Shown: one piece after another, positions 1 to 64,000 of the stretch
Layout of the letters: each line of letters begins with the position of its first letter
Position numbering within the stretch: the stretch's first letter is position 1
Position numbers and translations under genes: made by a program
The notes under the pieces: model-generated
Databases searched by the model: none
Told to the model about the DNA's origin: nothing
Seen by the model: only the letters and a program-made list of their open reading frames with translations
Source of the DNA: Heterotrichella gracilis
Lineage: Eukaryota > Sar > Xanthophyceae > Tribonematales > Xanthonemataceae
Direction of reading: 5' to 3'
Assembly: GCA_032358255.1 (NCBI GenBank)
Contig: JAULBX010024739.1
Coordinates: forward strand, 1-64,000
Length of the DNA stretch: 64,000 bases

Positions 1-3000
1 CCGCCCCCCCCGCCCCCCCCACCCCACGCCCCGCCCGCGCCGCCGCCCCCCTCCCGCTGCCAGCCCCCCGCCCCACCCCCCCTGGCTCCCCCTCCGCCGC
101 CATCCCCGCCTGCGTAGCCTTCTTCAGCTCCCCTGTAAACCCCCGCACCTCCCGCCGCAGGAGGGTGTTCATGTGGGCCACGTACTCGTCCCGCAGGGGC
201 TGCAGGCAGCTGGGCTGGAGCGCGCGCATCACCTGGGGAGGTAAAGGGGTGAAGAAGGTCAGTTGTAGGGAGGGGGTTTAGGGCTTTAACCCATTTGGCA
301 GAGATTTGTTAAAAGCTTTTAAGCCCATTTGCCTAGTTAAAGCACAGGTGGGTCCGGCCTAAACTCAAATGCCCTGCCCAACTTCAAAAGCCATGCCCGG
401 TTTTAAAGCCATGCCAAATTGAAAGCCAAAGGCCCCACCCGCCACCCAACCCCCCACCTGCAGCAGGGGGTCCAGCGCCTTGAGCCGAGCCCTCAGCTCC
501 TGATGCTCAGGCAGCCCCTTGGCATAGCCTTGGGCACGATTGAGTCCCGCTGAGATGAGGGTGGTCAGCTCCGAAACAACAAACTTGGATGCGCGTTCAA
601 CAAAGATGCGGCTGAAGGCACTGAGGCGATCCCGCTGGTCGCGCACAGCCTGTAAGGGTTGAAAGAGTGTGTTTGTTGGTGGTGGACGGCCTGGTTAGGG
701 TTTTGGGGGCACGCCAAAGCCTAGCCAAATCCAAGCAGATTCCTTGCAAACCGGGCAAAGCAAACTCTGGTCAAAGGATGGCCAAATCCTGGGCAAACCC
801 TAGCCAACACCCTAGCCACACCTGCATGTTTGCCATGCTCTCAGGTAGCGCGTCCTCCCCCTCCCCCTCCCGCAGCGCGTTTATGTGATCGTACAAGTCC
901 CACCCTGCTGCCGATACCCGGTCCACGCTGCACAGGGGGAGAAGGGGGGGGGGGAGAGAGGTCAGCGGTGGGGACAGGTAGTGGGGAGAGGCAAGGGGTG
1001 GTGTGGTGCTCCAGTATATGCAGGAGGGGAGGGTGTCACTCTGAACGGGGTAAATAATAGCATTAACCAGCGCACACGCTGGAGCACATGTACCTCATTT
1101 GGTTGCTGATATGCACAAGCAGTAAACCTTAAACCCTAAACCTTATACCCTAAACCCTGCAACGGTATTTGCTCCAGCAACTGTAGATTCCCGCAAGGCA
1201 GATAACAAGGCAGTACCAGGGTATGATATATGTCCCGTGCCCCGCATCTCCCCTTATTTCCCTCTACACCCTCCCCCTCCCCCCCCCCTCGCTTTCCCTC
1301 CCCACTCACTCTGTTATCCTTATCTCCCCTGTGAGCAGCGCGCTCTCAGTTGCTGTGGACAGCGTGAGGCGAGTCAGCAGGCCCTCAAGGGAAGACAGCA
1401 GCTTGGAGTGGTTGCGGGCCTGGGGAGGGAATTGGAGACAAGGGGTGAAGGGGTCGGAGGGGGCAGGGGAGAGAAGGGGAACTGTATGAAGCTTGCCCTG
1501 AGGGTTTAGGGTTTAGAGTTTAGGGTTGCGCCTGTGCATGAGCCACCCCAAACATATACATCACAAACACACACACCTGCGTATGTGTCTGTCCCATCCC
1601 CATCACACACCACGATAGCTACATCACCCCGCAGGCGAAGCAGCTCCTGGCCAAACCCCCACCATCACTCTTCCTCCACCACCACCACCACCACCACCAC
1701 ACCCCCCACCTGCAGCTCCAGGCGGTTGTTCCTGCTCTCGATGGTAGCTATATCATCCCGCATGTGGCGCAGCTTCAGGTCAAAAATGCTCAAGTGCTCC
1801 TCCACATCCGCCACCCCATCGAGCACCGCAGTGAGGGCGCGCAGCACTCGGTCTACCAGGGGGCCGGATTCCAAAATGGAGTAGATGTTGGCATCCTGAA
1901 GAGGATTTTGACCAGGGTTTGGTTAGAATACTGGCTAGGCCTACGAAGGTTTCGGGCAGGGTTTGGGTTAGGGTTTTGGTGGGGTTTTGGTTGCGGTTTT
2001 GGTAAGGAATTTTGTGGCATGTCTAGGGCATATGTGGGGTGAGGGCGCACAGCACTCCGTCAACCAGGGGCCCGGACACCAGAATGGAGTAGATGTTGGC
2101 GTCCTGCGCAGGATTATGGTGGGGGTTTGGGTTGGAATACTGGCTAGGGTTTCAGTGAGGGGTTTGGTGAGGGTTTTTTTTCCGTGTGCAGAGTGTTTTG
2201 GCAGTCCTTCCCCTACTTTTCATGGACTATCCAACCCCCATTTTGGGTCGCGGTAGGGTTTTCCTCCACCCCACAATGCACACCCGTACCTCCAATAGGG
2301 TCAAGGTTGGGTTTCTGTCCATCACAACCCCCTTACCTCTAGGGCCAAATGCTCCTCCTGCAGCCTCTCCTGGAATTCCTCAAATTCGCCCACCCCCACA
2401 GATGACCCATCCAGAAGGGCCTGCACATCGGAAGAAAAGGAGGGTGACAGAGTTTAAATGATATGATCACTATGTCTTAGTACAACGGCATCTTCAATGA
2501 AAGCACACAGCCCTTGCCAAATCCCTAACCAGCACCCTTCCTACACTCACCACCCAAGTGCATGAAATCACACCACCACCACCCTCTATCCATCCATCCC
2601 TAACCCCCATATAGACATCACCATGGCACCCCCCTCTCACCTGCAAATCCTTTTCCTCCTTGGCCGACACCAGCGACACCGCCCCCTCCTCCATGGCTAT
2701 CCGCACCCCCTCCTCCCCGCCATAGTCCAGCAACCCACCCAGGTTGCGCCCCCCTGGAACCCCGGGGGCGGCCACCCCATTGGTGGCGCCAGGGCTAGTG
2801 GATGCGGCTGCGCCTGTGCCTGATCGAGTGGGGTGGAGTGTGTGGTTGAACATCGCATTGGAGGAAGCGAGTACGTGGTGGTGATGGGGGGGGGAAAGGC
2901 TGGCGAGGATGGTCAGGCATGCAAAAGTGGGAATAAAATATGGAACAATATTGGGGAATAATGAGAGGCGTCTAAAAAACACAATGTTGGCACAGGGTAC

Positions 3001-5072
3001 AAAAATGCCTTAACCCCCTGTGGGTTTGTAATTATAATACATCAGACGAATTATATTAGTAATGAACCCTGCCCTGCCCCACGCTCCTCCCCGGCTCCCC
3101 TCACCTGCCGCGTCCCCCCCGTTTGTGGTTTGTGACGCCATCCATTGCTCCACATCCCCCTCGATGCCAACAATCTGGGGCAGCCGGCTCTCATGCTTCC
3201 TGCAGGGTGTAAAGAGCACACACATACTCACCCATGCGCATGCCTACACACATATGGTATGCACATTTGGTAATGCATGCATCCCATACATACACAGATG
3301 CACAAAGCACACATGTAGACACATGCATGCGCGCATAGTGCGATACAGCACGAGCAAATATACACAGGCAACCCACAAATCCACAAGCTCCCGTGGCCTT
3401 GCAGGCATGCACATGCACATACATGCGCATACATGCACACAATTTGCCGCACATGCATTCGCCCCCACCCCCACCCCACCACCCCCGCCACACGCACTTG
3501 CAGAACCGGTACAGGCTAGCAAACCCCTCCCCCCGCTTGGCCCCGTTCTCAAACTGGAAGGCCAGGCGCGTCTCCTTGGCAAAGGCAGCGTTTGAGAAGA
3601 ACACCAGCGCCAGATAGGCCCTGCCGGTGGCATCTGGCTCTGGGAAAACCTCCACCCGAGTGAGGTGCTTGAGCTTCCATGTCTTGCCGATCTGGGGATT
3701 GGAAAAGGGAGGGGTGCGGTTGAATTGGGTAGGTTTTGGTGTGGGAGTGGGTGCTTTTAAGGGGCCAGGGGGGTGCAAGATTTGTAGGGGGAAAAGGGCG
3801 ACAGGTAGGCCCTGCCGGGGCATCGGGCTCTGGGAACACCTCCACCTCCACCCGAGTGAGGTGCTTGAGCTTCCTTGTCTTGCTGATTTGGGATGGGAAG
3901 TGGCAGATGAGGGGTATGTGGCGTGGGGGAGGTGCTAATGCACTGCAGTGGGTGCAAACCTTGGGTGGAGGGGTGAGGAGGGAAGGGGATTTGGGTGCCC
4001 CCTCGCGGGTACAGTAAACCCTAAACCTCAGCTGGTGTGTCCCTCCTTGTCGCTTGTACGCGTGCAGCTGCCCCGAGGAGCCCTAAACCCTAGACGCAAA
4101 CCCTAAAGCTTACCTGATACGTCCCTCCTTGCCGCTTGCACGCGTGCAGCTGGCCAGAGAAGCCCCTCTTCTTCACACTCCTTGCCGCAGTCACGCATAT
4201 CACGCGCTCCTTGCCCTGGGGCTGAAGGGTGGGGGGAGGGGTGGGGTGTAAAAGAGGCTGGGTACCGGTGGGTGGATGGGTGGGTGGTGAGGGGTGGGGT
4301 TGTGTTGCTTGGACGCAGCAAGCGTGAGGGGTGCGGTTGTGAGGGCGGCGCAGGGTGTGTGTGTGATATGATATGGCGGGTGCGGTGCGGGGAGAACTGT
4401 CCGGTGGCACACTGTTGAAGTGATACCCCAGAAGTTATGGTGCCACCCGAGGTGCCGTGCGTATTGTTCTGTGGCACACTGTTGAAGTGTGCAAGGGTGG
4501 GTGTTTTATGGTGGGTGGCAGGGTGGCACGCCAGTGTGGCTTACCTTTGGCAGGCGCTTGCGGGACCAAGCTGCGCCTGTTTGGGGGGTGCACTTGACAA
4601 CCTGGGGACAGAAACACGCAGTGGTGGGTGGGGTTTGGGGTTTGGGGTGTGAGGGGGGTATCAGCAGGGTGGGCAGATGCACCTGATATGCTAGATTGGG
4701 GAGCGACATAGAGAGGACTGCACTTTGTTCAACAGGAGGACAACCAGCCAGTGTGTCCGCAACAAACACTGCCATTTGAAGCTCCGTTGGGTTGCGCCAC
4801 TAGTTGGGTCCTTGGCGTGCAACACACCACGTGCTAAAATAGGGGCTGAAGGTAGAGGCCAGTTGAATAAACGAAGCCAATCGAGTTGGTTTGAGCGGGA
4901 GTTTGCTTATGCATGCATATGGGGCGGGGTTACATTGTGCCCTAACACGCTCCCTGCCCAATACCCCCCCAAACCCCGGCCCGTGGCTCACCTTGAACGC
5001 GCATATCACCCTGTCCTCTGTGCTCGAGAACACCTGCTCAATAGCCTTGAGCAGCGCAGGATCCTCCGACAT
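1..5072 (-). CDS. SEC3: Exocyst complex component SEC3 (3' end beyond window)
   Basis: Subunit of the exocyst, which tethers secretory vesicles to the plasma membrane; the N-terminal PH-like domain of the family binds PI(4,5)P2 and Rho-type GTPases. Twelve exons close in phase: 4992-5072, 4545-4601, 4114-4221, 3498-3691, 3105-3199, 2641-2819, 2337-2420, 1710-1895, 1310-1419, 822-927, 458-649, and 1-232 (open). About 541 residues are visible; plant SEC3 is near 890, so roughly 350 C-terminal residues lie off the left edge. The PH-like region spans residues 20-170 and includes WKLKHLTRVEV. The coiled-coil segment includes LSIFDLKLRHMRDDIATIES, nearly the plant SEC3 motif; exon 12 has the conserved TLLRREVRGF. 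The start is the only ATG that opens exon 1 in phase. Exons 3, 4 and 8 have diverged partial duplicates in neighbouring introns. Identification is firm; the end of exon 12 is uncertain because its tail is Gly-rich. Confidence 0.93.
1128..1526. repeat. Degenerate interstitial telomere-type heptamers in SEC3 introns
   Basis: At 1128-1158 four degenerate CCCTAAA-type units lie in tandem, and at 1499-1526 four TTTAGGG-type units flank the other side of exon 9. They are too short and diverged to be a chromosome end. The same heptamer recurs singly or in twos and threes in most introns of the window. Confidence 0.8.
2040..2105 (-). repeat. Echo of SEC3 exon 8 (acceptor edge)
   Basis: A direct copy of the first 66 or so bases of SEC3 exon 8 (source 1830-1895) lies in the upstream intron. 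It keeps the acceptor AG and still encodes DANIYSIL..SGPLVD..L.ALT with three replacements. The downstream intron sequence (GTTTGGNTTRGAATACTGGCTAGG-like) is copied too, so the unit is about 200 bp in tandem. Confidence 0.88.
3801..3889 (-). repeat. Echo of SEC3 exon 4 (acceptor edge)
   Basis: This is a diverged copy of 3611-3691, the 5' part of SEC3 exon 4 encoding GKTWKLKHLTRVEVFPEPDA. It sits in the intron immediately upstream of its source. A small duplication of CCACCT and several substitutions separate the copies, and the original acceptor is altered. Confidence 0.87.
4029..4083 (-). repeat. Echo of SEC3 exon 3 (donor edge) with telomere-like spacer
   Basis: This is a diverged copy of 4112-4166, the 3' end of SEC3 exon 3. 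It is separated from its source by AAACCCTAGACGCAAACCCTAAA, a degenerate telomere-type stretch. Confidence 0.87.
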
Positions 5073-6364: not shown

Positions 6365-9300
6365 TCACGTGGGCAGCCCCCCCCTCTGCATTTCATTCAT
6401 GAACCGCTCATACTCATTCTCAACCTTGACCTCCGCACCGGGTGGCGGCGGGGGCGGGGGATGCGACGGCATGGGCGGCATCGGCGGGCCACCCGGCATG
6501 GGCGGCGGCGCACCGGGATACCCACTGCTGGGCAGCGGGGGTTGGAAGGAGGTGGATGTGCCCGGTGGCGGGGGTGGCGGCTGGCCATACCCTGGTGGGG
6601 GTGGTTGACCGTAGCCTCCCGGAGGCGGTGGCGGTGCCGCGCCGTACCCCGGCGGCGGCGCACCGTATTGGGGCGCGTACCCCAGGGGCGGGGGCGCATA
6701 GCCTGGGTACGCCGCTTGTGGCGGGTACCCTGGGTAGGCCGGCGGCGCGCCCGGGTAGGCCGGCGGCGGGGGACCGTACCCCGGCGGCGGCGGGCCGCCC
6801 GGCGGCGGGTGGTACGGCATGGTCGTCGGCCGCATGATGGGCGGGGCGGCGCCCGGCGGCCGCTGCTGCTGCTGGTGCTGCATGTCGGGCGGGAGCGCAC
6901 GCTGGCCCGCAATGCGCACCACCAGGGGCTTGTCCCCGCCCATGTTGTAGTTGTTGAGCGCCCGCAGCGCCGCCTGCGCCACCGCCGGCGAGGCCATGGT
7001 CACAAAGCCAAAGTTCTTCTTGTTGCCTGTCTCGCGGTCCTGCGCAGCAATGGGGGTGATTGTGAGTGGAGGGGTGAGTGAATACTATAATGGAGAATAT
7101 GAAGAAAAAGCCAGATAAATACATTATGTGCAGCATTGGAGCACAGCCGAGCCCTTTATCAATTTCCCCTTTCTAAATGCGCGCAGCGGCCACATGACGG
7201 TTCAATACTTCTGCCCAGGCGTTGCAGGCACAGGCGTACTACATTTTCTTTGCACAGCCATTGCAGACCAGAGGCCTTACAGGGTCATGAAGAACACACA
7301 GAGAATACACTTACCTTGACGATGCGCGCCTGGACCACGGGGCCGTAGGCGCCAAACAGCGCCGCCAGCGACTCGTCCGTCATGCTGGGCGGGAAAGCAG
7401 ACACATACAGCTTGGACTCGTCCTGCACCGGCTCGCCGCCGCTGCCAAACCCGCCGCCGCCGCCAAACCCGCCCCCACCGAAGCCGCCCATGGGCGGCAG
7501 GCGCGGCGCGGGGCCCTCCGACCGCACCCGCACGATCAGCGTCTTGCCCTCGATCACCTTGCCGCTCAGCGCCATGGAGGCGTTGCGCGCCGATGCGGAG
7601 TCCGCCATGTGGCAGAAGCCGTACCCGCGGCTCTGCCCCGTGGCCTGGTCCATGAAGAAAGAAATAAATAAATACGAATGAATAAAAAAATAATTTAAAA
7701 ATCATGAGTCAATAAATGAAGAAAAAAATACCGATAAGAATATCTACGCAGCCTGCCCAAGAACAGGCGCGCTGGATTAAGCAAGCAGATTTAACTAAGA
7801 GAAGGGCAGTGCAGGGTGGCACGGCCAAAGTACCCCCCATCCCCATGTGTGCTGGTTGTTGTAGTGCAGATTGAAGCAATTGCAACATCAGCAATAAAAA
7901 CATACAGTATATTTTGTGTACCTGATCCATGAGCACCACCGCGTGCAGCACAGAGCCAAAGGGCTCGAACATGGCGCGCATGGCGGCGTCGCCGATGGAT
8001 GGCGCCAGGTTGCCGACGTACAGCTTGCAGTCGTCGGGGAGGTCGTCCCCGGGACGCATGGGGCCCGGCCGGGGGCCGCCCTGGCCCCCGCCGGGGGTGG
8101 AGGCCATCCCCGGGGCTGGGCCACCGCCCAGCTCCGCCAGGAAAGCCTTGTACTCGTCGTCCTGCAGGGGAGGGATGTGCATTTACTTTATGTTAATTTC
8201 ATATTGTTTTGCTAAGGCATGGCGCACCATCACACCCCTCCCCCGCACCATGCACCATGTGTGCCCACAAGTTTCACGCCACATCGCCGTCCAAAACCCT
8301 CTACCCTAAGCCAAAACCCTACAAACTGTCACACCCGGAAGCGCCTTGGGGTATCCTGTCTTGATGAACCATCTGGACATCCTGCTTCACCTTCCCATCG
8401 TCAAGCGAGAGCTGGTTGCGCAGGATCCCAAACTGTTCACCAAGACAGGATACGCCACCTTTAGGGAGTGCATCCATTACTAAAGCATGCCGTGGAACCT
8501 GTGGGCACCCACCAAAGGGCCGGGGCTCCAGGGCTTGTCTCCAAATGGGTTGTACTGGCACAGGGTCTAAATGTATGCGCCCTTCAAACAGGGGCTTGAT
8601 GCAGACTAGACAGCAGCGCAGGGCAGCCACCCGGCATTAACCAGCAGCCTCCCAGCTCGCACCCTGTGCAACCCCATCATCCCCACACCAACGCCCACCA
8701 CCCTGCCCACCTCCTTCACCCACGCCACATTCTTGGCGCACCAGCCCACCACCTCCATGTCTACAGGCAGCTGATATACCACCCACCCACACCCACCCGC
8801 CCCCAACCACCAGTACACACCCACACCACCCACCTCCTTCACCGCGCCGCCACCATGCACGCGCGCCACGTCCTTGGCATACAGCTCCGCCACCTTGTCC
8901 TGCATGTCCTCGGGCAGCTGGTACACCTCCAGGGCAGCCTTGGGGCACTCAAACTGGCGGTGGCCCGTGTCGCCGCAGATGAAGCAGTACTGGTCGTCCT
9001 TGAGGGTGCCGTTGAGGGCCGCCAGCTCCCGCAGCTGCAGGCGCTTGTGCTCGTTGCGCGACTCGTCATCGGGCTTGAGCAGGTCGTCGATCATGACAGC
9101 GGCGGCGTCCACCTGCATTTGGTGTAGGGTTTGGGGGTTAGTGAAGGATTTGGGGCTGATGACGTCGACCTGTGGTGGGGTTAGGGTTTAGGGTTTGGGT
9201 TTGAGGTGAAGGGCTTGATCATGACTGCGGCGGCGTCCATCTGCGGCGGGGTTTGGGGGTTCAGAAGTTTGGGGTTTAGGGTTTCATCATGACGATGGCG

Positions 9301-11979
9301 GCGACCTGCGGGTGGGCAGTGGATTGGTGGGGGTGGGATTGAGGGTGTTAATCATGGGAAGGGTCTGGCTTGCGCAGGAACTGTGCATCAAGGTTTAGGG
9401 TTTTCTAACCCATGCACTCCCCGAAGTCACATTCGGGGTGCCCTACTGCTGCACCCTGGCTTAGGGTTTTGTGCACCAGGGTATGTAGGGTTTTGTGCAC
9501 CACTCACGTCCTCCTGCGTGTCCCCCGTGATGAGCACATGCAGCTCCTCGTCCTCCCCATAATCGTATTTGGGATCCCTGGCAGCGCCCTCCTTGACCGA
9601 CCCCCGCCCCCTGATGGCGATCTTGGTGTTGGTCTCCTTCTGCATGCGCTTCTGGGTGTTGCCGCGGGGGCCGATGATGAGGCCAATGAAGTTGTATCCC
9701 GGGTACTCCTTGATGGGGATCACGATCTTTTTGGTCTTCTTCAAGGGCCGGTAGTCTGCAGGGGCGGAATTGGCATGAGAACTGTCAGGAGACTTTAGGA
9801 TGCTGGCTGGTGCGACATTGAGGGCGACCTGCCTATATATATGGAATGCATACAACTGGCTGATTCACAATAGGGCCGATGATGAGGCCAATGAAGTTGT
9901 ATCCCGGGTACTCCTTGATGGGGATCACGATCTTCTTGGTCTTCTTCAAGAGCCGGTAGTCTGCGAGGAAAGCAGGGTGTGAACAGTGATTAACGGTGGA
10001 TGGAGCGAAAGTGGTTGCCCCGTTATACTGCATGTCACATGCCTGCGATGTACCCAAAACCCTAAACCCTAAACCCAGCCCATTCACCACCCAAAGTGGT
10101 GCAGCTGGTGTTTCGCTTGACAGGCTTGCTTGTGATACCCCAAAAACGAATGCAAGTGTATGTATGTGTCAATGCTTACACCAAGGTCATGCCCCGCAAG
10201 GGGCATGCAGTGGCATTGCAACTTTGTAAGGTTGCAATTGTGCGCCTCCCTCGATTGTCATCCATCAGCTGGCCGTGCAGCATGCATGCAGAGTGGATGC
10301 AGCGCGCCAGTGGCGTTGTAGCCTCACATGTTTAAACACATCGTGCGCCTGCTGTACCCTGACCATGAGAGACGGATGCAATTCGCCGTGCCTGGCGGCG
10401 CACAATGCATACGGTGCAAGGTGCAATCCGCGACCCCATCCCCCCACCCTTCTCCCCCCCGCCCCACCCCCCACCCCCAACATCTCCACCCCCTTTTCCC
10501 CCACCCCATTTCCCACCCACCCACCTGCCGGCGGCTTGTAGTTGGTATCCGTCTTGATCAGCTCCTCAATCAAATCCTGGCGACGCGCCATGAGCTTGTC
10601 GCGGTACCGCACCTCCCTTGTGTTCTGGCGGATGCCCATCTTGTCGTACACCGGCTCGGGGGAGGGCGAGCGCTGGCCCTCGGGCGGGATCTCGTACTCG
10701 TTGTTCAGGATGCGCCGGTTGACGTCGTTCAGCTCCTCGTGCAGACGCCGCACCTCCGGGTCGCCGGTGGCGGGGCCGCCCGTGAGCGAGGTGGGCAGCG
10801 ACACCTGCGGGAGGGGGAGGGGGTAGTATGGGTAAGGTTAGTTTAGATTGGCCTGGATTGGAACAGATTGCATGCATTCCAGTAAGGAAGGTGGGCAGTG
10901 TTGCCTGCGGCAGGTGATTAACTTTTTATGACTGCAATACGGTACTGAGCCAGTCGAGCAGCCAGGCTTGCAAATGAGGAAGCAGTGCAAGATGGAGGAG
11001 CAGTGTTGTGCAAACTGAATCTGAAGCCAAATTTGACGGTCAGCCTCAGAGGAAAAAAGGGGGCTAAAACACATTCTAAAACCCTACACACTATGTGCCA
11101 AGCACTTCCAGCCTGGGGCTAGTTGTACCCCCACGGCCTGATAACTAAACAGGTTGATTGGTGCAGCAGGGCAGGTGTGGAGTGTTCAGGAGTGGGAAAC
11201 ACTGCGGGACGCATATGCATGCATATGGCGGTACTGGCAATGAAGGCAAAGAATTGCTCTGCAGGTCCCCCAGAGGACGGGAGTGCCCTGTGGAATATAC
11301 CCATCAATGTCCTGCCCTATTACCATATGTAATGCAGCTGCCAGGAGTACTCTCTACCACCTGGCCCTGGGTGGGCTTGGCGCACCTTGATGCCGCCAGA
11401 CAGCACTATCTCTCCAGGCACCCCAGAGAAGATGGAGAGGGCACCGGAGGTGGAAGCTGGTGCAGCCGAGGGTGCTTCTGGATCCTCCCAGCGGCTCCTG
11501 CGTTTCCGTTTGGGTGCGGGCTCGGCCCCACCATCAGCGGTGGCAGGGGCCCCACCCTCCGGTGCTGGTGGTGCTGGGAGTGGGGGTGGTGGGGGGAGGG
11601 GGACGGGCTTGGGACCGCCCTTTGCGGCTTCAGCCCACTCCGCGATCACCTTCTCTGCTTCGGGGTCCTTGTAGGCTGGTGGGCCCCACTCGTACCTCCG
11701 TTTCACTGGGGGCGTGGGAGGGGCGGGGGCAGGGGGGAGGGTGGCATCACTGCTGCCGTTTGCTTGCCCGTCATCGAGGTGGGGCTCGGTGGGAGCGGTG
11801 GGTGCTGCGGGGGACTGGTCCGGGAGCTGGATGTAGTCTGGCTGCGATGCTTCTGGCTCCTCAATTGTGGTGGCATCGGCTGGGATAGCGGGCTGGGCAT
11901 CTGGGCCATCAGTGGTGGAAGGCACAGCCTGCTCCTCCAGAGCTCGCAAAAAGTCGTCCGCCTCCTGATGCACGTCCAT
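6365..11979 (-). CDS. SF1: Branch-point-binding splicing factor SF1/BBP with two RRMs
   Basis: Nuclear protein that binds the intron branch point in the early spliceosome and contacts U2AF65. Seven exons close in phase: 11386-11979, 10525-10804, 9508-9755, 8834-9112, 7922-8161, 7315-7644, 6365-7039; 881 residues. In order: U2AF-ligand-like basic-Trp motif KRKRRSRW (157-164) with a weaker KRRYEW near 93-98; helix-hairpin region with the conserved SPSP phospho-motif ([16 protein letters not shown]); KH domain with [19 protein letters not shown]; one CX2CX4HX4C zinc knuckle ([14 protein letters not shown]); RRM1 (KLYVGNL...GYGFCHM); a Gly-rich linker; RRM2 (KLYVSAF...FGFVTM); a Pro/Gly-rich tail. 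Plant SF1 usually has a single RRM, so the pair is unusual. The start is the first ATG of exon 1, shared with a divergent promoter toward petF. Exons 3 and 4 have echoes nearby. Identification is firm. Confidence 0.95.
8708..8780 (-). repeat. Echo of SF1 exon 4 (donor edge)
   Basis: This is a diverged copy of the end of SF1 exon 4 (source 8834-8925), still readable as VYQLP.DM...AK.VA...KEV, followed by a donor-like GT. It lies in the intron just downstream of its source. Confidence 0.75.
9150..9312 (-). repeat. Serial echoes of SF1 exon 4 acceptor edge
   Basis: Two clear and one weak short copies (about 25-30 bp) of the junction reading ATCATGACAGCGGCGGCGTC-CACCTGC (source 9088-9115) recur at roughly 9217-9245, 9285-9312 and 9158-9178. 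They alternate with TTTAGGG heptamers in the upstream intron. Confidence 0.75.
9872..9961 (-). repeat. Echo of SF1 KH-domain exon (exon 3, acceptor edge)
   Basis: A 90-bp copy of 9666-9755 sits 117 bp upstream of its source in the preceding intron. It retains an acceptor (GCAG before ACTACCGG) and encodes the KH core with one replacement (Pro to Leu) over about 30 codons. The nucleotide differences are very few, so this is one of the youngest echoes. A GT follows at the point where similarity ends, so it could be recognised as a cryptic exon. Confidence 0.93.
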
Positions 11980-12515: not shown

Positions 12516-13484
<969 letters not shown>

Positions 13485-19953: not shown

Positions 19954-21291
19954 TGGTTGTGTGGAGGAATTGTTTGTGTGTGGGGGGGGGGATATATCAG
20001 GGGGGGAGGTGCAGGGAGAGGGGAGGGGGGCAAGGGAGGTGCTTGCCAGCTGCAGCACATGGCCATGTGGACCTCTGGCAAGCACCATAAACCCTAAACC
20101 CTACACCCAGCCGCAGCACATGACTGGACCCCTGGCCGGTGCAACTCCTTCAACACATGCTTCAACTGGAACTCTGCGCAATGGAGGCGGTCGCTATATT
20201 CACCTGCAAATTTCTTGGCAGGCGCTGCGCAATGACTGGACTTCTGGCCTGTGCAAGCCAGTGACAGATGCTTTCACTGGAACGACCATGAGGACAGTGG
20301 GCAGTGGGCAGCAGGGTTTGGACTCATGCGCACCTGTTTTTTAGTTCAATTTTTGCAGCTGTGGGCAGTGGAGCTTACTGTATCTGCTAAAGCAAATCGA
20401 AAGTTCGATTAATCAAATATTTGACCCCAAACAATACGTTCAAAATGCCATTGAAGGGAACTTGAACCAGGGCTGTATCCTTCAGAGACTCAGTGGGGTA
20501 GGAGCCAGTGGGTGGCCTGCCCCGCCATGGGCAGCGGCGCTGCTAGGATGGCGCATGCAATTTTGTGCAGTACAATTGTCCTTTATGCTGTCCTACTGGT
20601 GACACTCAATGGAATTTTCAACCTGTTGGAATTGAGCCTCCTGCAGTTGTGTGACACAATGTGGCGCATAATATTATCACAAGTTTTGTGTACCTGGTGA
20701 TGCATTGGACCCCTACAAACGGGGTACCCATAATGGTTGGGGTACACCAACAAAACCTGGGGTAACCGGTGAACCCTTGCAAGCGCATGCGCAACGTTTG
20801 CTCACATCGACTGACGATGAACATGGGGTATTGCTGTGTTGCATCCCCCTGAACCTTTCTAAATTGGCTGTCAGTGGTGTTCAAATCCAATTTTAGAATG
20901 CCGCGGAGCCTTGGGCCGCTGGAACGCTTCGGTGTCAAATTTAGGGGGCTAAAATGTCGCTTGTAGAGAAGGCTCAGCCGCTTTGTAACCCAGACAAGTG
21001 TGCACTCTGGAGGACTCATCGCCTTTCACGCTGCCAGCAGGCGCTGGGTGCACAACAAAACATTACATAAAATGAAATGTCTGGAACGGTTCCTACCAGC
21101 AGCGGGAAAAGCAGAAAAGGAGCTGCACACTAAGTCTAGATCTAGCTAGAAATATAGTACAAACTTGCAGTGCACTGCAACTTGAAGTCAATTTCCTCCC
21201 GCACGATTATGTTCCTTTTGATCCACACAACGTCTAGTCTAGTCTAGTCTAAGACTGGCAAAGCGGCGCCACCCATGGTGTAAGATTTAAT
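19954..21291. other. Convergent 3' spacer between NADK and the coiled-coil gene
   Basis: It contains the two NADK terminal-exon echoes and, at 21233-21252, a (GTCTA)n run of about four units. Otherwise I see no exon or recognisable element. Confidence 0.6.
20105..20295 (+). repeat. Two downstream echoes of the NADK terminal exon
   Basis: Copies of 19865-19918 (encoding [16 protein letters not shown]) lie beyond the stop codon at about 20121-20180 and 20235-20290, each containing GACTGGA and TTCAACTGGAAC/TTTCACTGGAACGACC. The first is preceded by AAACCCTAAACCCT. So echoing is not confined to introns. Confidence 0.82.
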
Positions 21292-32710: not shown

Positions 32711-32775
32711 CTGGTTGTTGCCCTGGTGCGAGCCAGTGGCCCATTTGTGCGTCCCCTTTCTTTCTTACAGGCTGT
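32711..32775. repeat. Dispersed repeat copy
   Basis: GCCCTGGTGCGAGCCAGTGG followed by TTGTGCGTCCCCTTTCTTTC. Relatives of the first half occur at 44697, 57238 and 42731, and of the second half at 14208 and 44735. Family borders are not resolvable from one window. Confidence 0.6.
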
Positions 32776-33794: not shown

Positions 33795-34175
33795 ATTGAC
33801 CCAAAACCCTACAGGGTCACACGCTGCACCAGAGGTCGCTGCTGTGCCCCCCACACGCGGCTAGGGTTCCGCAGATCGACCCCAAAACCCTACAGGGTCA
33901 AACGCCGCACCAGTGGCCGCTGCTGTGTCCCCCACGCGCGTCTAGGGTTCCGTGGATTGACCCCAAAACCCTGCAGCGCCACGCGCCACATCCGTGGCCG
34001 CCGCTGTGCCCTCCGCATGCGCCCAGGGTTCCACGGATTGAACCCAAACCGCTAAGCCATTAAGTGAGGCGCTGCCCCATTGCATCCACCCGAGGTCACA
34101 CACCGTACCAGTGGCCGCCACTGTGCCCCCCACGCGCGCCTAGGGTTTCTTGATATACCCCAAAACCCTGCAGGG
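33795..34175 (-). repeat. 81-bp tandem array copying the last codons and stop of the adjacent gene
   Basis: Units begin with ACCCC(A)AAAACCCT at 33799, 33880 and 33961, with degenerate units at 34041 and 34092; the source is 34158-34230. Read on the minus strand the units encode HSSDLWCSV-stop, HSSGHWCGV-stop, HSGGHGCGA and HSGGHWYGV-stop, against the genuine HSSGHWYGV-stop of the terminal exon. Each unit also carries a CCCTA(A)A-type motif and CTAGGGTT. Confidence 0.92.
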
Positions 34176-48162: not shown

Positions 48163-50530
48163 ATGGCGCAGTCCCAAAGTCACTCCCAAAGGCCCGAAAT
48201 TGACTCTGCAAAAACCCAGCTGCTCAACCTGACCGTGCTGAAACGCTTTGACGCGGACATCGAAGAGGTGAGCTGCATACCAACGCTGCTGTACCTGATA
48301 TTAACACTGGGCATCGTCTCAAAACATCCCGTTTGCACTGCAGGCCCTAGCCAGTGCTGGACATGTTGCGCTCTACGACTTCGACATTCCCACAAAATCT
48401 TGGGTAAGGGGAGGATATTTATGGTGCCCTGACACCCATCGTTAGTTCTTCAAGTTTCTGATGAACCCTGGCGTGTTCTGGCATTGCTTACCTTGAGCAT
48501 TGGGGTGTGGTTCCATGTCATGACTGTGGGGTGTGCAGAAACGGAAAGATGTGGAGGGCTCACTGTTCATCCTGAAGCGCCGTACCCAGCCACGCTTCCA
48601 GATATTCATCTTGAACAAGAAGAGTGCTGGTAGGGCTCCTGCTGGTGTGTTGACTGCTCCAGAAAAGCCACAAAATCCCCTTGTCTCACTGCACCACCCC
48701 ACTTTCTGCAGCCAACTACAAAGAGGATGTACTTGGAGGCTTCCAGTTCGAAGTGAACAAGCCCTACCTACTGTACAGGAACCAGCAAGACCAGGTATGG
48801 TCCTGTCCCATCCTTGATGTTACAAGGGCATGTGGGTCTGACCCAAAAATGCCACTGGATTTGACCCAGAATCACAAGTTGTTTCCCATGTCGTGACACT
48901 TGTTGCCCACTGAGGGGTCCCTGTCTGTGGTACAGGTGCTGGGGATATGGTTCTACGACCACAGCGAGTGTGACAAGGTTGCCCAGCTCCTTACGCGCAT
49001 CACAAGCACCTTCACTGCCACCACAGCACCGGCAGCTGTCGCGGTACGAGGGTATTCAATGGGTCTGGTCTTGCTTACACAGGCACAACCACAGCAAGTA
49101 ATGAACAAATTACCACCATTTGTCAGGCTGTATGTATCGACATGGGTAATTCAGGGTTTAGGGTTTTAGGGGCACTAGCTGGTGCACCTACACTGGGCTT
49201 GTGTTGTTTTTCACTAAAAGTGGGCCTGGTTTGTTCCAGAGTACTTCTGACGGCACTGGCAAGGATGGGTTTTGGGATGCTGAGGTGGCGGTGGACGAGC
49301 AAGCTGCTGACGCCGCCCTGATGCGCGAGCCAGCGCCACCGGCAGCCACCCAGACACCGCCATCAACAGGTGAAACCAGACCCCTTTTTGCATATATAGA
49401 TGTAGAACCGCTATGTGTACCAGGACAATTGCCTGCAAGCCCTTCTCATCGCTTTGCATCCACCTCCTCGCATGGGGCCATCAATGGGTGACGTGTTTGC
49501 CAGTGCTCCACTGGCCGTGGATGCATGCGGTGGAGCATGCATGTAGTTGTATCCGGGGGGGTGCGTGCTGCTTAGGGACACATACGATGGTGAGGATGTG
49601 GGTGCGTGCGGCTTGGATCGCGCGTGCGTAATATGTGTAATCATGTGGTGATGTGCCGAAATCCCTAAAAGACATTCCCTAGTAATTAAACCCTGACACA
49701 GTTGTGTTGCGTTGCAGCTGCCCTGGGAGCCAAGCCCTCGGAGCCTACCCAGCCCAGTGGCCTGCTCACCCCAGCACATTTCCAGCAACAGCAGGCGCAG
49801 CCACCGCCACCCACCCTCCAAGGTGCGCCCTGCCGGTATCCACTTTGACGCGCGCTGCCGGGTTGCACCCACCCATGAATTGGTGCACTCCCCCCCGACA
49901 CCATTGGCACACAAACAGTGATTGGCGCAGGCACAACTGCACACATGCCGACAATTCTTCTGTTTTGGAGGATGTATTTTTTGTGCACCTTGCTTTGCCA
50001 CTGCCCCTCAACCGCACACATTGTCAATGGAATGGAATCTAATGGAATCTAATTGCACCTCCTCAGCAGGACCCGCCCCCGGCGAACCCATTCCCGCCAC
50101 AAACCTACTCCAGCAGCTAGGCATCCGCGCCTCAGCAGGCCCACCACCGCCCCCCGCCCACCCGGAACCAGCCCCCACCGCGCCCCCGCCGCCCACCCCC
50201 CCCACCCCCCACAACAGCCAAGCTGCCGCCAACCAGGTTGCGGCAGCGAACCTGCTGGGCATGCTGGGGGTGGCCGCATCCACACCCACAGCCGCACCAC
50301 CCACAGCCACACCCACGGTCGCTCCCAGCCAACCCCCCGCGCTGTTCCTATCCGCCGCGTCCACGGCGCCCGCCCCAGGGCCGCTGCCGGCGAGCCCTGT
50401 GGCGTCGCCACCTGGCGGCGCAGACGAGGCGCTGCGGGCGAAGCTGCGGGGGGCGCTGGCGCGCGTGGTGCAGAGCGATGCGTTCCTGGATTTGCTATCA
50501 GAGGAACTGCAGCTTGCAGGGCTGGTTTGA
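48163..50530 (+). CDS. DCP1: mRNA-decapping enzyme subunit DCP1
   Basis: Activator of the DCP2 decapping enzyme in cytoplasmic P-bodies. Eight exons close in phase: 48163-48267, 48344-48403, 48539-48629, 48712-48794, 48936-49043, 49240-49369, 49718-49822, 50067-50530; 381 residues. The EVH1-type domain (residues 15-150) has hallmark sequences LNLTVLKRFDADIEE, RKDVEGSLFILKRRTQPRFQ, PYLLYRNQQDQVLGIWFYD and ECDKVAQLLTRI. The middle is Pro/Ala-rich with two similar helices, ATNLLQQLG and AANLLGMLG, which may bind partners. The C-terminal helix DEALRAKLRGALARVVQSDA fits the trimerisation segment. The start ATG gives the usual short lead before the EVH1 fold. Terminal-exon echoes continue past the stop. 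Confidence 0.95.
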
Positions 50531-51877
50531 GCAATCTTTGCGGGATGGGGGTTCACGGCTGCCTGGTGGGTGGGCCGCACCCTGCGAGCCATGTGCCGTC
50601 GCCACCTGGCGGTGTGAGCGCTGCCTGGGTCCGCTACACGCCTTAGTCTACATGCAGCGTGAGCGGTGCGATTTGGGCACAGGTGCTGCAGCGGGCGGGG
50701 CTGGTATGAAGGGTGCTTGTGGGGAAAACCCTGGCGCGGCAAGACAGCAGGGGGTGGGTGGGGCCTGTGGCTGTGGCCTGGGTTCATGTGGGGGGCAGTG
50801 ATCGGTCTACATGCATGGCTGCCCCCATCTCCCTCCCATCCCCTGCTTTTGATCATGGCTGGGTGGGTGGGCCGTGTGTGAGAGACTGGGGACTGCGATG
50901 CGCAGAGTGTGGTGATGAATCCGCGTGAGTGTGCTGCGGGCCCTAGCATAGCCCAGTTTGATGGTTTAGGGTAAATGTTTTCATACCTTAGCATAGGGAT
51001 GAGCCCAGAATGGATGGACGCTGCTTGTGTTGCAAAGTATCACGGTTAGTGATAGGCTAGCCTAAGGCTAGGTTGGGCAACTCTAGGAACAAGTCTCAAC
51101 CGGTCTGAGTCTTAGGCTATTTGTCTTAGGCTACTTGTCCAAGTTTGCCCCCAGGGCCTTGTAATGCGGCCATTGCTTGCTACCAGGGCGTCATGGTGAC
51201 ACGAGCAGCTATGGCCCTGTGCCTGGACTGTGACTAGACCAACGAGTGCATGCCAGTGCCACTGGCATGTTCATGGAATGCAACATGGAAAGTGCCCAAC
51301 ATTGCCCTGGCATTGGGCCCTAGGTGTTCAGTCGTGCCTCACATATCAACTAAGAGTTCAGCGGCCATCGTTGACCTCTGGTGCCTTCAAGGGGTGATGG
51401 CAAGTGGAGGGCTAGCAGAGGGGAGGAACCCAGCTCTGGCTCTTGGTGCATGCATGCATATGTAGCTGATTGCAGCGTGTACAACCCTTTTCGTATCCTT
51501 TTCGTATCCTTTTCATCTGCAACCATCCAGCACGCGTATACATCGTAGCTGAAAAGCTTCCCAGTCGTTCACCTCACCCTTGTTCACGTTTACCAGGGAT
51601 CCTTTCACAAACTGACGGCCGCGACCCTTCCTAGCCCTTTATATATAACTGTACGTATTTATACAAGTGCAGCTTCGCCCGAGACGGTTGCCAGCCCACT
51701 ACTGCCCCATATGGCATGGACCATCAACTAGAACCAAACTAAGCAACTTACCTCAGCACACCCGGACGGTGAAGGGGACTGAACGGGCCAGCCATGAGCT
51801 CCACCACTTGACCTTTCGCACACTACACCCGAGCAGCACCTTGGCGGTGAAAAGGGTGGTGTGTGGGTGGTGCAACC
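50531..51877. other. Spacer between DCP1 and TAF6 with DCP1 terminal-exon echoes
   Basis: 50585-50650 copies 50390-50450 (GTCGCCACCTGGCGGYGYGA...), 50683-50720 copies the end at 50508-50535 (GCAGGGCTGGTTTGAGCAAT), and 50810-50885 repeats the post-stop GGCTGCC...TGGGTGGGCCG segment. The rest (50950-51877) holds no exon I can support; TTTTCGTATCC is tandemly repeated at about 51488-51520. Confidence 0.7.
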
Positions 51878-54800: not shown

Positions 54801-57800
54801 CCGACCAGCTGGCAACGCACCTACACCACCTGGCACCACTCCGCTGCCTGCTGCAGTTGGCCAGGTGCATGGTGGAGAACGGGGGTTTGAAGCTGGATGC
54901 GCACGTGGGTCAGCTGATGCCTGCGGTGGCTTCGGTGCTGCTGGCAAAGCAAGTGGTGCGTGAATGCGTGTGTGCGTGGAACCCTTGTCTAGGGTTTCGG
55001 GGGGACTCAGGCTGGGCGTGCAGTTGGGTCAGCTGATGCCTGCGGTGGCTTCGGTGCTCCTGGCCAAGCAAGTGGTGCGGAGCAGAGAGTGTGTGTGTCG
55101 GTAGACCCTGGCTTAGGGTTTCAAGTGGGCCGGTGCAGTGCCAAAGTTTGCCAGGGCTGGGGCTGGATTCGCCTGTGGGTCAGCTTACGCATGAACCCCA
55201 AATGAACCCTAACCAAAGCACTAATCCTGAAATCCTAAACCCTGCAGGGCGAGGACAGCGCTGACCACTAGGGCGTGCGCCAGGCCGCAACCTGATTCCT
55301 AAATATAAGGTCAACCCTGACGCTAAACCCTAATTTTGAACCCTAAACCCCACAGGGCGAGGATGGCGCCGACCACTGGGGCGTGCGCCAGGCCGCGGCG
55401 CAGCTCCTGGCCGCCACCTGTCGCCGCTGCAGCAGCCTGGACTCGGCCATGGTCCCGCGGGTGGCTCGCGTGCTGCTGGGGGCGCTGCTGGACAGGGCGA
55501 GGCCTCTCACCACACACTATGGTGCGAGGAGGGGTTGGTGGTGGGGTGGGGTAGGGACCCCATGGTAGGGTTTTGCGGCGGGCCCGGTGGTCGCGGGCGA
55601 GGGTAAGGGTGCATTTTGTGAGTTAATGTGGGCGCCACTGGACCGAAGGGGTCCGCTGTGACCCAGGCCGCATGGTTGGGCACACAAGGACGACTGCTCT
55701 TGAATCTTGCACTGCTTGAGCCTGCAATTGACCCTAGCAACCCTAACGAGGCACCCAAAACTCCCCCTTGTAACGCCAAAACACACCAAAGTATAGAAAG
55801 CCAGACCCCTTCTTTCTGCAGGTGCCCTTGCCGGTCTGACTGCCCTGGGCCACGATGCCGTGCGGCTGTACATCACACCAAATGCGCAGCAGTACCTTGC
55901 GCTGCTTGAGCCCGCCATGGACCCTAGCAACCCTAATGAGGCGCAGCGGGCGGAGGCGTGGAGGTGCTATGGCCTGCTGCTGCGCGCATGTGCGGGGGCC
56001 ATGTACGAGAGGATGCAGAACGGGTGCGTGCTGGTGGGGGAGAGGGTGTTGCAGGGCGTGGGTGGTGCCCTATATAACAGAATAACACAATAATGATGTA
56101 TCAGGCCAGCCGCAATGGTCTAAGTGCCCTATATGTGTCATGATCTGGTTGTGCCTGGGCTACTGTTGTATTGCGTTCGATCTCCCCTTTGGCAGCAAGG
56201 CAAGTTTACTATAAACACATGAATATCCACACATGATGTCAATAATATTACTTGATTTTTGCAGTAATTTATATTTACTGTGCAGGTACTTGGAGCACAT
56301 CGTGACCTTCCCATCAAGGGGGAAAACGCGACTACTGCCCGAGCTCCCAGAAACAGTAACCCTCCCAGAAACCCTAGCGGAACCCCAGGCACCCTCCCTT
56401 GACCTCCCCACAACCTCGCAAGGGTCCCTTCCTCCCCCGGCTGCCAACACCCACCCGGCTGGTGGTGGTGGTGGTGGTGGTGGTGGTGGCGCTACGCCCA
56501 TGGAAATCAACCTCCCCTCCAACACCCTCGCCCCCCTCCGCCCCCCTGGGGGGATTTTCAAGGGGCTCCCTGCCCTGCCATTGGCTGGTCCACAATCAGG
56601 AGGGCACAGCGGGACAGTGCCAGTGGCTGCGCCAGTGGCGGGTGGGGCCCCACCGCCCCCACCGATGGGTGTTCAAGTGGGGGGCGGGGGGACGCCCACA
56701 GCCACACCCACCACCACCACCGCCCATCCACAGCCGGCACCCCCCACCGTCCCCCACCCCCCCTCCGTCCCCCCAGCCCTGGCAGCCCTCGCCGGCCACC
56801 CCACCCCCAGCCTCCCAACCGTGCTCCAGCACCCCCAACCAGCCGCCACAGCACCCACCACCACCACCACAGCCCCCATCCTCGCCCCCCCCGGTGTTGC
56901 CACGTCAGCACAGCCACAGGCGGGGCCGCCAGGTGGCGCCGCCACGGCCGCCCCCAGTGCCACGTCAGCACAGGCATGGCCGCTAGGTGTCGCACCACCG
57001 GTGGGCGGTGGTGCGGGGGCGCTGGCGGCGCAGGCACTGCCGCCCTCGTCTTTGTTTCAAATTGGGGCCGTGCCCATGCAGGTCCCCAGCGGTGAGTCTG
57101 GAGATGTCACAAGTACTGTCATGTGGTTTATGACACAAAATGAGAAAATAATATTAGGTCCAAACTGGGGGCTCTAACGATGCAGTTACCCGCCAGTGCG
57201 TGTTGGGATTGCAATTTATCCAGGTTACTATTTTGAGTGCCCTGGTTCAAGCCAATGGCCACGTCCTTTGCCATACAACAGCTTCCAATTTTGGTCATGG
57301 CTGCGATTGTGATCTGATTGTCTATCAATTGAGTACAACCATGCATGTGGCTGACTATCTAACACGCCACTCCCCTGCGGCAGGCACTGGGGGAGCCAAC
57401 CAGGGGGTTGTTGTCATCGACGGCTCTGATGAAGGGGAGGAATCACAGGAGGAATCGGAGGAGGAATCTGACGATGAGTCAGAGGATGGGCAAGCGGGTG
57501 TGAAGGGACAGGTGGCGGCGCCAGGTAAGGCGCGGTGCCCTGGCTTTAGGGTTTTACATGCTTAACTAGGGGCTCCCCAGATGCATCACCCTTGTCGAGG
57601 GTCTCACACTGTGTGGGTGGCACCGACACCCCCTTGCACACCCACCACCATGGGGGGACATAGCTGCCAGGGGCGATGGCCATTTTAGTCCCGGGCGACA
57701 ATCACTGGGCACACACCTTGACCAAGACAAAACCATTTCTTTTTGGTCCAAACCTGTAGAAGGGTATGGTAGATCATTTCCTCCCTATTGTGTTGGCTAA

Positions 57801-58558
57801 TTCGCCACTTTTTCGTGCAGTGCTGTCTGTGGCCCAAATGCGCGCCCAGCTGCTTGCGCGCACCACCCGGGAGGCAACCGCTGCCAGCGTGCGTGCAGCT
57901 CTGAAGGACACGTGGCGGGATGACAGCGACCTGGGGCTGCAGGTGGGGCGGCTAGGGTTTAGGGTTCACCGACCAGTTTAGGGTTCCCTTGGAATGCGGC
58001 ATCGTCGCAGGGAGCACACAGGAGGGTATGGCACATTGTGGGACGCAGATGCATGACCATGCCGCTTGCCAGGATCTCGTTGGCAAATCGCCCCCACCCG
58101 CTAGTTGCCCAGAAAGCCACCACCCCTCCATTGCCCCAGTCCACCAGCTGACACTGCCATGTGCACCCTACGTGCTCCTAATGTGCACCCCCCATGTGAT
58201 AGCTCCTGGGACAAATGGCGGTATACACGCGTCCTATGCGCGTGGAGGCTCTCTCGGTGCTGCTTGGCACGACCTTTCCTGGTGCATTGCAGCAGGCGTC
58301 AACCCTAAAACCCTAAACACAAACCTTAATCCCACGCGTGTGTGCTGTGTGCAGGCTGAGGCCCTGTCTGTGCTCTTTGGCGAGGCGCGGCTATATTGCA
58401 GCAGGCGTCAACCCCAAACCCTAGACCCTGAACTCCAAACCCTAAACCCTAAACCTATGCGTGTGTGTGCTGTGCAGGTTGAGGCCCTGTCTGTGCTGTT
58501 TGGCGAGGCGCTGCTGCCCTACGTGCCTACGGGGCCAATCGCATATGTATTTCTGTGA
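51878..58558 (+). CDS. TAF6: TFIID/SAGA-type subunit TAF6
   Basis: Histone-fold subunit of the general transcription factor TFIID. Thirteen exons close in phase: 51878-52003, 52584-52670, 53005-53106, 53492-53702, 54032-54117, 54513-54636, 54762-54955, 55356-55521, 55822-56023, 56286-57091, 57384-57524, 57821-57942, 58478-58558; 815 residues. Histone fold at 3-68 (FIQPSSIQVAAQALHIPKLS and TTLTVDDVNNALRSRNVQP); then FSSGDPTAFVKASGHPDVYF; TAF6 HEAT domain from exon 5 to exon 9 (LSQELQTYYDR; DHWGVRQAAAQLLA; HYGALAGLTALGHDAVRLYI). Exon 10 is a 269-codon Pro/Thr/Ala-rich insert with a (GGT)n polyglycine. Exon 11 has VVVID followed by a run of acidic residues and Ser, a classical SUMO-interaction motif. 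The C-terminus, ALKDTWRDDSDLGLQVEALS and FGEALLPYVP, matches plant TAF6 ends. At least six exons have echoes. Confidence 0.95.
52700..52925 (+). repeat. Echoes of TAF6 exons 2 and 3
   Basis: GGTGGACGGCGTGAACAAGG at 52709 copies the exon 2 end at 52630. CAGCCTGCTTTCATGTTCTC at 52741 and CCCTTTGTGTTCTCACGCAG at 52896 are diverged copies of the start of exon 3 (53005 onward, CCCGCCTTTGCGTTTTCAAG). All lie in the intron between the two exons. Confidence 0.75.
53753..53796. repeat. Perfect 21-bp inverted repeat, 2-base loop
   Basis: Arms 53753-53773 and 53776-53796 are exactly complementary (CAGGGGTATACTAATATACT...), forming a 44-bp near-palindrome in intron 4 of TAF6. It is AT-rich in an otherwise GC-rich intron. 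Its arm length is the same as that of the hairpin at 42401-42451, but the sequences differ. Confidence 0.95.
54985..55295 (+). repeat. Echoes of TAF6 exon 7 (donor edge) and exon 8 (acceptor edge)
   Basis: 55008-55080 copies 54890-54960 almost exactly, including the donor region, with a weak third copy at about 55150-55190. 55241-55292 copies 55350-55402 with its acceptor; it now has an in-frame TAG where exon 8 has TGG. TTTAGGG-type and AAACCCTAAA-type pieces lie between them. Confidence 0.93.
55705..55756 (+). repeat. Echo of an internal part of TAF6 exon 9
   Basis: Copy of 55894-55945 (GCTTGAGCCYGCMATKGACC and then CTAGCAACCCTAAYGAGGC) in the upstream intron, about 189 bp from its source. 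Unlike most echoes the clear part is internal to the exon, with only weak similarity back to its edge. Confidence 0.88.
56461..56490 (+). repeat. (GGT)10 coding repeat in TAF6
   Basis: Encodes about ten consecutive glycines in the TAF6 Pro/Thr-rich insert; the frame is open on both sides. Confidence 0.95.
58225..58465 (+). repeat. Two echoes of the TAF6 terminal exon (acceptor edge)
   Basis: Units of about 115-120 bp: 58336-58391 is a close copy of 58458-58513, with acceptor GTGTGCAG and encoding AEALSVLFGEA; 58228-58275 is an older one (GTGGAGGCTCTCTCGGTGCTG). Each is followed by TTGCAGCAGGCGTCAACCC and CCCTAAA heptamers, so the whole unit was copied with its telomere-like spacer. Confidence 0.93.
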
Positions 58559-63201: not shown

Positions 63202-64000
63202 GCCTCCCCTGGGGTTGGGGGGGGGCGCAAGTTATGGATACGGTTGGTCACCATGTCTCTTTCTAAGAGTCTCTGCCTGGGTGACAATCTGACTCCAAAT
63301 CCTTCCAGAGGTTTCACATTGAATGGGTAAATCACACTCAGTGGCAGTTGTTGTTACAGCGCATTGCGAACATATGTTGAAAAGCCAAATGGAAGAACAT
63401 TTAAGCCATCGTCCTTTTACAGCAGACTGCATGACACTTTCGAACGCCTTGCAATTGATGATGCGAATTGCCATTGATTCAGAACCCAATGCCATGATTC
63501 ACTAGTGACACCCACTGCCAGCACTTTTGAGCTGCTGCGCCTGGCAGTGCCAAATCTGAGGCTGCTCTATTCCTATGACTCATAACAGACATCACACTGT
63601 GATCTTGGGTGGGTGCACATGCCACAATGATTGGCCACGGGTGCAAAAATGCATGCATGGAAGTTCAAAAGTCTACTCTGTCAGACAAAGCGCAACCACC
63701 AGACTGGCAAGTATAAAAATTGGCAGCATGCCACCACGATTGTTGAATGTTGCGTGATTGTTCTGGTTGCAAATTCCAAAGCGCTGCGCTCGGAAAGAAG
63801 GATCAGCCTGAGATCTCAAACTGATGAACAATGCGCGATGCAGGCTGTGCATATGCAGCTGACGTGTTTGCGAACTTGGAAATTCAATGCTGAAACTAAT
63901 GCAGCCTACATCACCTAGGCACCGGAAGGGGCGCCCTATTCGTAACATTATTTGGAAAACTGTGCCACATATGCAAGTTACACTAATGTAGAAATGCGTA
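63202..64000. other. Right-edge spacer
   Basis: Presumed 3' UTR of the secreted-protein gene and intergenic DNA to the window edge. Base composition falls toward 45 percent GC, and I see no exon, repeat array or regulatory motif I can defend. Confidence 0.5.

What the first reader, a model, noticed from the sequence alone, without database searches (positions are those of the whole stretch)
1..64000. Genome-wide-looking pattern of exon echoes: exons surrounded by partial copies of themselves
At least nine of the genes carry short (30-110 bp) direct copies of their own exon pieces, mostly exon edges with the splice site, placed in the adjacent intron or beyond the terminal exon. I count about thirty-five. 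Copies range from nearly identical to barely visible, all in direct orientation and within a few hundred bases of the source, which implies an ongoing local process rather than one event. I know of no named element or mechanism that produces this. It could be a major source of intron growth and of new splice sites in this lineage.
Basis: partly seen in the sequence, partly recalled or inferred. Interest (0 to 1): 0.93.

Follow-up and report, generated by a model that had tools for sequence, protein, structure and literature searches.

The report
Decaying local copies of exon edges
In this intron-rich stretch of DNA, short pieces of exons are copied next to themselves into the neighbouring introns and then decay there, probably as scars of DNA-break repair, and they turn up beside exons more often than a blind process should give.

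Summary
In detail: 43 local direct repeats against 4 inverted (score >=44), grouped into 25 families, 22 of which overlap an exon. Nine acceptor edges are copied upstream, eight exon 3' ends downstream, five are interior pieces (22 families). The copies look dead: mismatches are 7.4% at codon positions 1 and 2, 18% at position 3, 14% in intron parts, as expected if the source is constrained and the copy drifts. That speaks against assembly artefact and functional exons. Best explanation: recurrent small tandem or partly tandem duplications, as left by end-joining of staggered breaks, kept when splicing hides the extra copy. This mutation class is known and a boundary-crossing case is published in potato, so 'no known mechanism' is not supported. 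Unexplained is the exon bias: 14 of 15 families in homology-supported genes, expected share 0.43, or 0.60 if exon copies stay visible twice as long (p=0.005). This rests on one window, hand-edited gene models and no other intron-rich genome for comparison.

The parts
9668..9964 (-). SF1/BBP KH exon edge: source 9668-9759, copy 9873-9964 upstream in the intron, 98% over 92 bp, 113 bp unrelated filler between
   Evidence: one copy fills the KH profile 1-76 of 76
9089..9261 (-). SF1 acceptor-edge echo: source 9089-9139, copy 9217-9261
1831..2177 (-). Sec3-like acceptor-edge echo: source 1831-1977, copy 2039-2177, spacing 208
3607..3899 (-). Sec3-like acceptor-edge echo: source 3607-3704, copy 3798-3899 (the gene finder had called part of this copy, 3846-3882, an exon; dropped by hand)
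4016..4165 (-). donor-edge echo: source 4098-4165, copy 4016-4083 with the GT lost; exon 4117-4200 set by eye
16199..16680 (+). NAD kinase donor-edge echoes, 93-bp tandem unit plus further partial copies
17322..17925 (+). NAD kinase: interior echo 17322/17446 (weak, score 39) and donor-edge echo 17783/17893
18244..18433 (+). NAD kinase acceptor-edge echo: copy 18244-18319, source 18358-18433, 96%, 38 bp filler
   Evidence: source copy aligns to solved NAD kinases
18879..19146 (+). NAD kinase acceptor-edge echo: copy 18879-18949, source 19076-19146, 93%; by eye similarity resumes past a short gap
19639..20283 (+). NAD kinase last exon: interior piece copied upstream (19639-19698) and another beyond the gene end (20138-20172, inside 20108-20172 which is again repeated at 20219-20283)
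25277..25787 (-). echoes beyond the predicted terminal exon (25683-25849) downstream of the VHS/GAT domains; exon from gene model only
29642..29792 (-). VHS/GAT gene donor-edge echo: source 29745-29792, copy 29642-29689
34402..35248 (-). unnamed gene: exon 34893-35074 echoed at both edges, three donor-side copies (34402, 34601, 34729) and one acceptor-side copy (35143-35248); the copy at 34608-34676 stayed in the exon map as called
36950..37196 (-). unnamed gene: copy 36950-37050 of 37096-37196, AG|GT in register in both; 36983-37128 is a candidate intron born by duplication
   Evidence: no transcript evidence
50378..50612 (+). exon-interior piece copied 194 bp downstream; exon 50114-50467 from gene model, placed with the DCP1-like gene by me
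54881..55396 (+). TAF6-like gene: donor-edge echo 54881/55000 (full tandem, 119) and acceptor-edge echo 55205/55313 (108)
55706..55942 (+). TAF6-like gene: exon-interior piece (55896-55942) copied to 55706-55752 in the upstream intron, clean ends, 89%
58286..58515 (+). acceptor-edge echo, full tandem, spacing 109; exon 58478-58522 from gene model only
33758..34206 (-). 81-bp tandem array touching a weakly supported exon by 18 bp

Best explanation
The echoes are scars of small local duplications that keep happening in this genome. A stretch of about 30-150 bp is duplicated in direct orientation within about 260 bp, either back to back or with unrelated filler in between, as left when a staggered break is filled in and end-joined or patched by copying nearby DNA. 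Shown here: locality, direct orientation, abrupt ends and filler in young pairs, decay of the copy at the neutral ratio. Inferred: the break-repair step, and the fate that follows. When the duplicated stretch spans a splice junction, splicing can keep using the outer copy of the exon edge, the extra copy ends up on the intron side, the protein is unchanged, and the copy decays while the source stays constrained.
For: Direct local excess over inverted, distant and shuffled. Codon-position pattern in 21 families: 28/379, 28/380, 67/373, intron 72/507; intron to positions 1+2 ratio 1.93, bootstrap 1.40-2.60, where 2 is expected for a free copy and a constrained source. Eight young pairs: 30-bp flanks match at 4-13 of 30 bases, 38-226 bp lie between copies; the 98% and 96% pairs have 4-9 of 30 and 113 and 38 bp. 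Of 22 families 9 acceptor edges are copied upstream and 8 exon 3' ends downstream. Head-to-tail cases 54881, 58286, 35049, 16205. Mutation class in print: PMC7407515, PMC8355091, PMC5730883 (passages); boundary-crossing tandem duplication in potato, PMC4974935 (results section).
Against: It does not by itself predict the exon bias, which stays after allowing exon copies a twofold longer visible life (p 0.002-0.005 in homology-supported genes). That copies lie outside coding sequence is partly by construction: two called exons that were copies were dropped by hand, looser runs called others, and one copy, 34608-34676, stayed in the map. No break or repair event was observed; slippage or template switching would leave similar marks. 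Microhomology at the joints was not measured. No other intron-rich genome was available for comparison.
Confidence: 0.72

Rival explanations
1. Replication slippage or fork template switching, not break repair, makes the local duplications.
For: Direct orientation and short range fit; several cases are head-to-tail.
Against: Eight young pairs are separated by 38-226 bp without flank similarity in register, which plain slippage does not give; template switching could.
Confidence: 0.25
2. The process is drawn to exons: breaks or repair patches are more frequent on exon chromatin, GC-rich sequence or beside splice junctions, so echoes record exon-targeted damage or repair. This can hold together with the best explanation.
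For: Simulated constraint alone lifts 0.42-0.44 to 0.45-0.53. Exons are GC 0.668, introns 0.551.
Against: One window, 15-25 families, gene models partly edited by hand at echo sites; no map of breaks; GC content and regional mutation rates not separated.
Confidence: 0.35
3. The copies are functional: alternative exons, decoy exons or tandem splice sites kept by selection.
For: 8 of 9 acceptor-edge copies keep an AG (counted by eye); in the 93% NAD kinase pair 4 of 5 differences are at third positions.
Against: Pooled codon pattern is that of a free copy; 3 of 21 pairs have frame-breaking gaps in the exon part; copies are partial, and the donor GT is lost at 4016 and 17893.
Confidence: 0.08
4. 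RNA-templated or cDNA-templated copying of exons.
For: Exon bias; copies always in transcript orientation.
Against: 17 of 22 copies carry flank beyond the exon. For 58 exon-exon junctions 46 crossing hits were listed: 10 (score >=61) are the junction's own exon place, some running on into similar intron bases; 36 score <=39, several in the low-complexity 35.5-36.0 kb stretch.
Confidence: 0.04
5. Assembly or haplotype artefact.
For: Two pairs are 96-98% identical; no reads were available.
Against: Divergence is ordered by codon position and intron, and 13 of 22 pairs are 15-23% diverged.
Confidence: 0.03
6. A mobile element or introner family with long target duplications.
For: The layout copy, filler, copy resembles a target duplication around an insert.
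Against: Fillers do not recur in the window: no distant direct repeat at score >=50, 9 at >=40.
Confidence: 0.05

Closest known systems
Small tandem and partly tandem duplications from staggered-break repair (rice study of Vaughn and Bennetzen 2014 as summarised in PMC7407515; Schiml 2016 as cited in PMC5730883; mouse cell work PMC8355091)
   Same: Size range, direct orientation, locality, tandem or with nearby copied DNA
   Different: Those are fresh or segregating events, and the passages I saw mention no exon preference; here old and young copies pile up at exon edges in one window
[quoted passage not shown] Rogers model as described there)
   Same: Duplicated stretch crosses an intron-exon boundary and keeps the acceptor; the same potato gene also has an 83-bp intronic duplication
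   Different: There a new intron is backed by RNA-seq; here most copies look inert, and only 36983-37128 is a candidate new intron
Polymerase theta templated insertions (PMC7407515 passages)
   Same: Short non-tandem copies of nearby DNA, as at 55706/55896
   Different: The copies here are longer than such insertions usually are (recalled), and microhomology was not tested

Membership tests
Small tandem / partly tandem duplications | Two copies in direct orientation within a few hundred bp | tested here: met
Small tandem / partly tandem duplications | Copies adjacent, or separated by filler with abrupt ends | tested here: met
   for eight young pairs; head-to-tail arrays
Small tandem / partly tandem duplications | Arises in one step by end joining, absent from the ancestral allele | not testable with these tools
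   no relative or second strain found: nothing, a bacterial contig, 33 loci at 33-53% identity on viral contigs, not examined as relatives
Intron gain by tandem duplication | New intron starts at GT of one copy and ends at AG of the other, spliced product restores the frame | tested here: inconclusive
   36950-37196: AG|GT in register in both copies and an open frame continues; over 58 introns no general excess, own mean 18.8 against 18.2, and this candidate intron was not among the 58
Alternative or mutually exclusive exons | Both copies under coding constraint | tested here: not met
   pooled over 21 families; single pairs are too short to judge
Introner or transposon insertion | Related insert sequence at many sites | tested here: not met
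   within 64 kb only; the rest of the genome is not available

The most novel reading that the evidence does not exclude
In this lineage small duplications are aimed at exons, so that introns (17 of 58 here) carry a fossil record of exon-targeted damage or repair, and now and then one such duplication founds a new intron.
Probability: 0.3. Interest if true: 0.8.

Novelty: new variant of a known kind. Interest (0 to 1): 0.6.

Why it matters
Small duplications are common but are mostly studied as fresh variants. Here one 64-kb stretch preserves a graded series from 98% to 77% identity with the source exon as a built-in clock, so rate, age and fate of such duplications can be read from one genome. 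[quoted passage not shown]

Tried and rejected
Rejected or set aside: spliced-copy origin; general in-register similarity of intron ends (no excess); a link between telomere-like motifs and echoes, since the motif is in 12 of 17 echo introns and 23 of 41 others, p=0.38; 21 of 54 echo ends lie within 25 bp of the motif against 10.0 position-matched, but the two copies of a pair are not independent, so I do not lean on it. A wrong turn: I took the contig for a eukaryotic one and used it as a control (2 direct, 2 inverted in 57.7 kb). On checking, its match lies in a 719-aa frame that I recognise as a bacterial polynucleotide phosphorylase, a KH-domain protein (no family search made), and the contig is densely coding. 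The same holds for 32 of 33 viral loci longer than 5 kb: 40 direct and 11 inverted in 416,570 bp, some loci being near-duplicates. The first gene-model run over-called exons and was replaced plus hand edits: 4 exons dropped, two of them echo copies, 14 added, one acceptor moved. Some edits looked at echo sites, hence the separate figure for homology-supported genes, which still uses edited exons. Rows left out: one search used 26 HSPs with overlaps, one HSP for each of 21 families; the 33758 array, 6642/6774 and 17322 are not; 33758 and 6642/6774 are not in the geometry. Gene territories were my own choice.

Full report
What is in the window. GC is 0.569, no N; no genome is held. A self-trained gene finder converged on canonical signals, [C/A]AG|GT[G/A]NG and CAG|G. 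Pfam names SF1 (SF1-HH, KH, zinc knuckle, RRM), a Sec3 coiled coil, a 2Fe-2S ferredoxin, NAD kinase, VHS plus GAT, DCP1 and TAF6 domains; 3 of 10 queries had no hit. Queries built from the source copies alone align to solved NAD kinases over residues 1-316 of 320 and to TFIID subunit 6 in two stretches, so the extra copies are not needed for the protein; they were left out of the queries, so this does not show that they are never used. The edited map has 69 exons, 11,904 bp.

The repeats are real. Self-blastn gives 37 local direct HSPs at score 50 or more, 3 local inverted, none distant direct, one distant inverted; ten shuffles give none. Switching off the low-complexity filter adds two. Six of eight local inverted HSPs are palindromes at a single site. 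I have no other intron-rich genome as a control: the contig used proved bacterial.

They sit on exons. Families sharing sequence number 29, 25 and 21 at score 38, 44 and 50; 24, 22 and 20 overlap an exon by 15 bp or more. Circular shifts give 11.2 +/- 2.5 of 29, none of 650 reaching 24; placement inside gene territories gives 14.3 +/- 2.2 of 23 against 22 observed, none of 2000 reaching it. Is that only because exon copies stay recognisable longer? A simulation with constrained sources and free copies lifts the exon share in gene territories from 0.42-0.44 to 0.45-0.53, and in the window from 0.24-0.26 to 0.26-0.33. Granting exon events twice the visible life, the most that one protected copy can give by my reasoning, the expected share in homology-supported genes is 0.597; observed 16 of 17, 14 of 15 and 12 of 12 give p of 0.002, 0.005 and 0.002. 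The bias is therefore probable, but rests on one window and edited gene models, and GC content (exons 0.668, introns 0.551) is not separated from exon status.

The copies look dead. In 21 families, one HSP each, mismatches are 28 of 379, 28 of 380 and 67 of 373 at codon positions 1, 2 and 3, and 72 of 507 in intron parts; the ratio of intron to positions 1+2 is 1.93 (bootstrap 1.40-2.60). Two free copies in the intron against one free copy in the exon predict 2. The 14 homology-supported families alone give 20/253, 14/255, 42/251 and 41/276. Sequencing or assembly error would not follow codon positions. Local alignments stop where similarity ends, so the intron figure is a lower bound.

Anatomy. 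Of 22 families 9 are acceptor edges copied upstream, 8 exon 3' ends copied downstream (7 donors and one predicted stop end), 5 interior pieces. No copy in that table contains mapped coding sequence, but this is partly by construction: the source is defined as the more exonic copy, two called exons that were copies had been dropped (9869-9960, 3846-3882), and in the 34.4-35.0 kb family the copy 34608-34676 stayed in the map. Some pairs are head-to-tail (54881/55000, 58286/58395, 35049/35143, 16205/16298). The youngest are not: SF1 at 98% has 113 bp of unrelated DNA between copies and 4 and 9 matches in the 30-bp flanks, NAD kinase at 96% has 38 bp. In the 93% NAD kinase pair similarity resumes past a gap by eye, so its true filler is shorter than the 126 bp counted. 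The piece at 55706-55752 is an exon-interior copy with clean ends. Spacing runs from 64 bp upward; values above 261 come from families with more than two copies.

Mechanism. Tandem, partly tandem and nearby non-tandem duplications of this size were reported in rice and attributed to asymmetrical nicks followed by end joining, as summarised in PMC7407515 (passage); DSBs with overhangs give tandem duplications in Arabidopsis, human and mouse cells as stated in PMC5730883 and PMC8355091 (passages). In potato a tandem duplication across an intron-exon boundary produced a new intron (PMC4974935, results section). The pattern here is what that mutation class leaves when splicing conceals the extra copy. 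The repair step is inferred; slippage or template switching remain possible.

A possible new intron. At 37096-37196 and 36950-37050 (minus strand, 86%) both copies hold AG|GT in register; splicing from the first GT to the second AG would remove 146 bp and an open frame continues. A query from this gene has no Pfam match (without the joined part) and no PDB match better than E=0.36, and there is no transcript, so it is only a candidate. My exon map does not use this junction. Across the 58 modelled introns there is no general sign of such a birth.

Literature. The library holds only open papers, so this is weak evidence of absence.

Noticed in passing
introns across the window, e.g. 9178, 10048, 58416: Telomere-type heptamers (rotations of CCCTAAA, either strand) are dense in introns: 341 in 23.6 kb, against 8 in 11.9 kb of exons and 169 in 28.5 kb elsewhere. 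They are polar: near acceptors 121 in CCCTAAA sense against 2 in TTTAGGG sense (shuffle expectation 11.2 and 0.9; 21 introns against 1), near donors 60 TTTAGGG against 20 CCCTAAA (expectation 4.4 and 2.2; 14 introns against 7, not significant by intron), with a peak 20-40 nt upstream of acceptors. Echo copies inflate the heptamer counts. They may be splicing signals, such as branch-site context, or break-repair inserts.
   Followed up: partly
36983-37128: Candidate intron born by duplication, AG|GT in register in both copies.
   Followed up: partly
22640-22815, 42394-42458, 53753-53796: Palindromes of 176, 65 and 44 bp at 81%, 92% and 95% self-complementarity, possibly foldback elements.
   Followed up: no
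33793-34048: 81-bp tandem array of 3.2 copies beside a predicted exon.
   Followed up: no
21530-21668: 21-bp tandem array of 6.6 copies, 93% matching, inside an open minus-strand frame.
   Followed up: no
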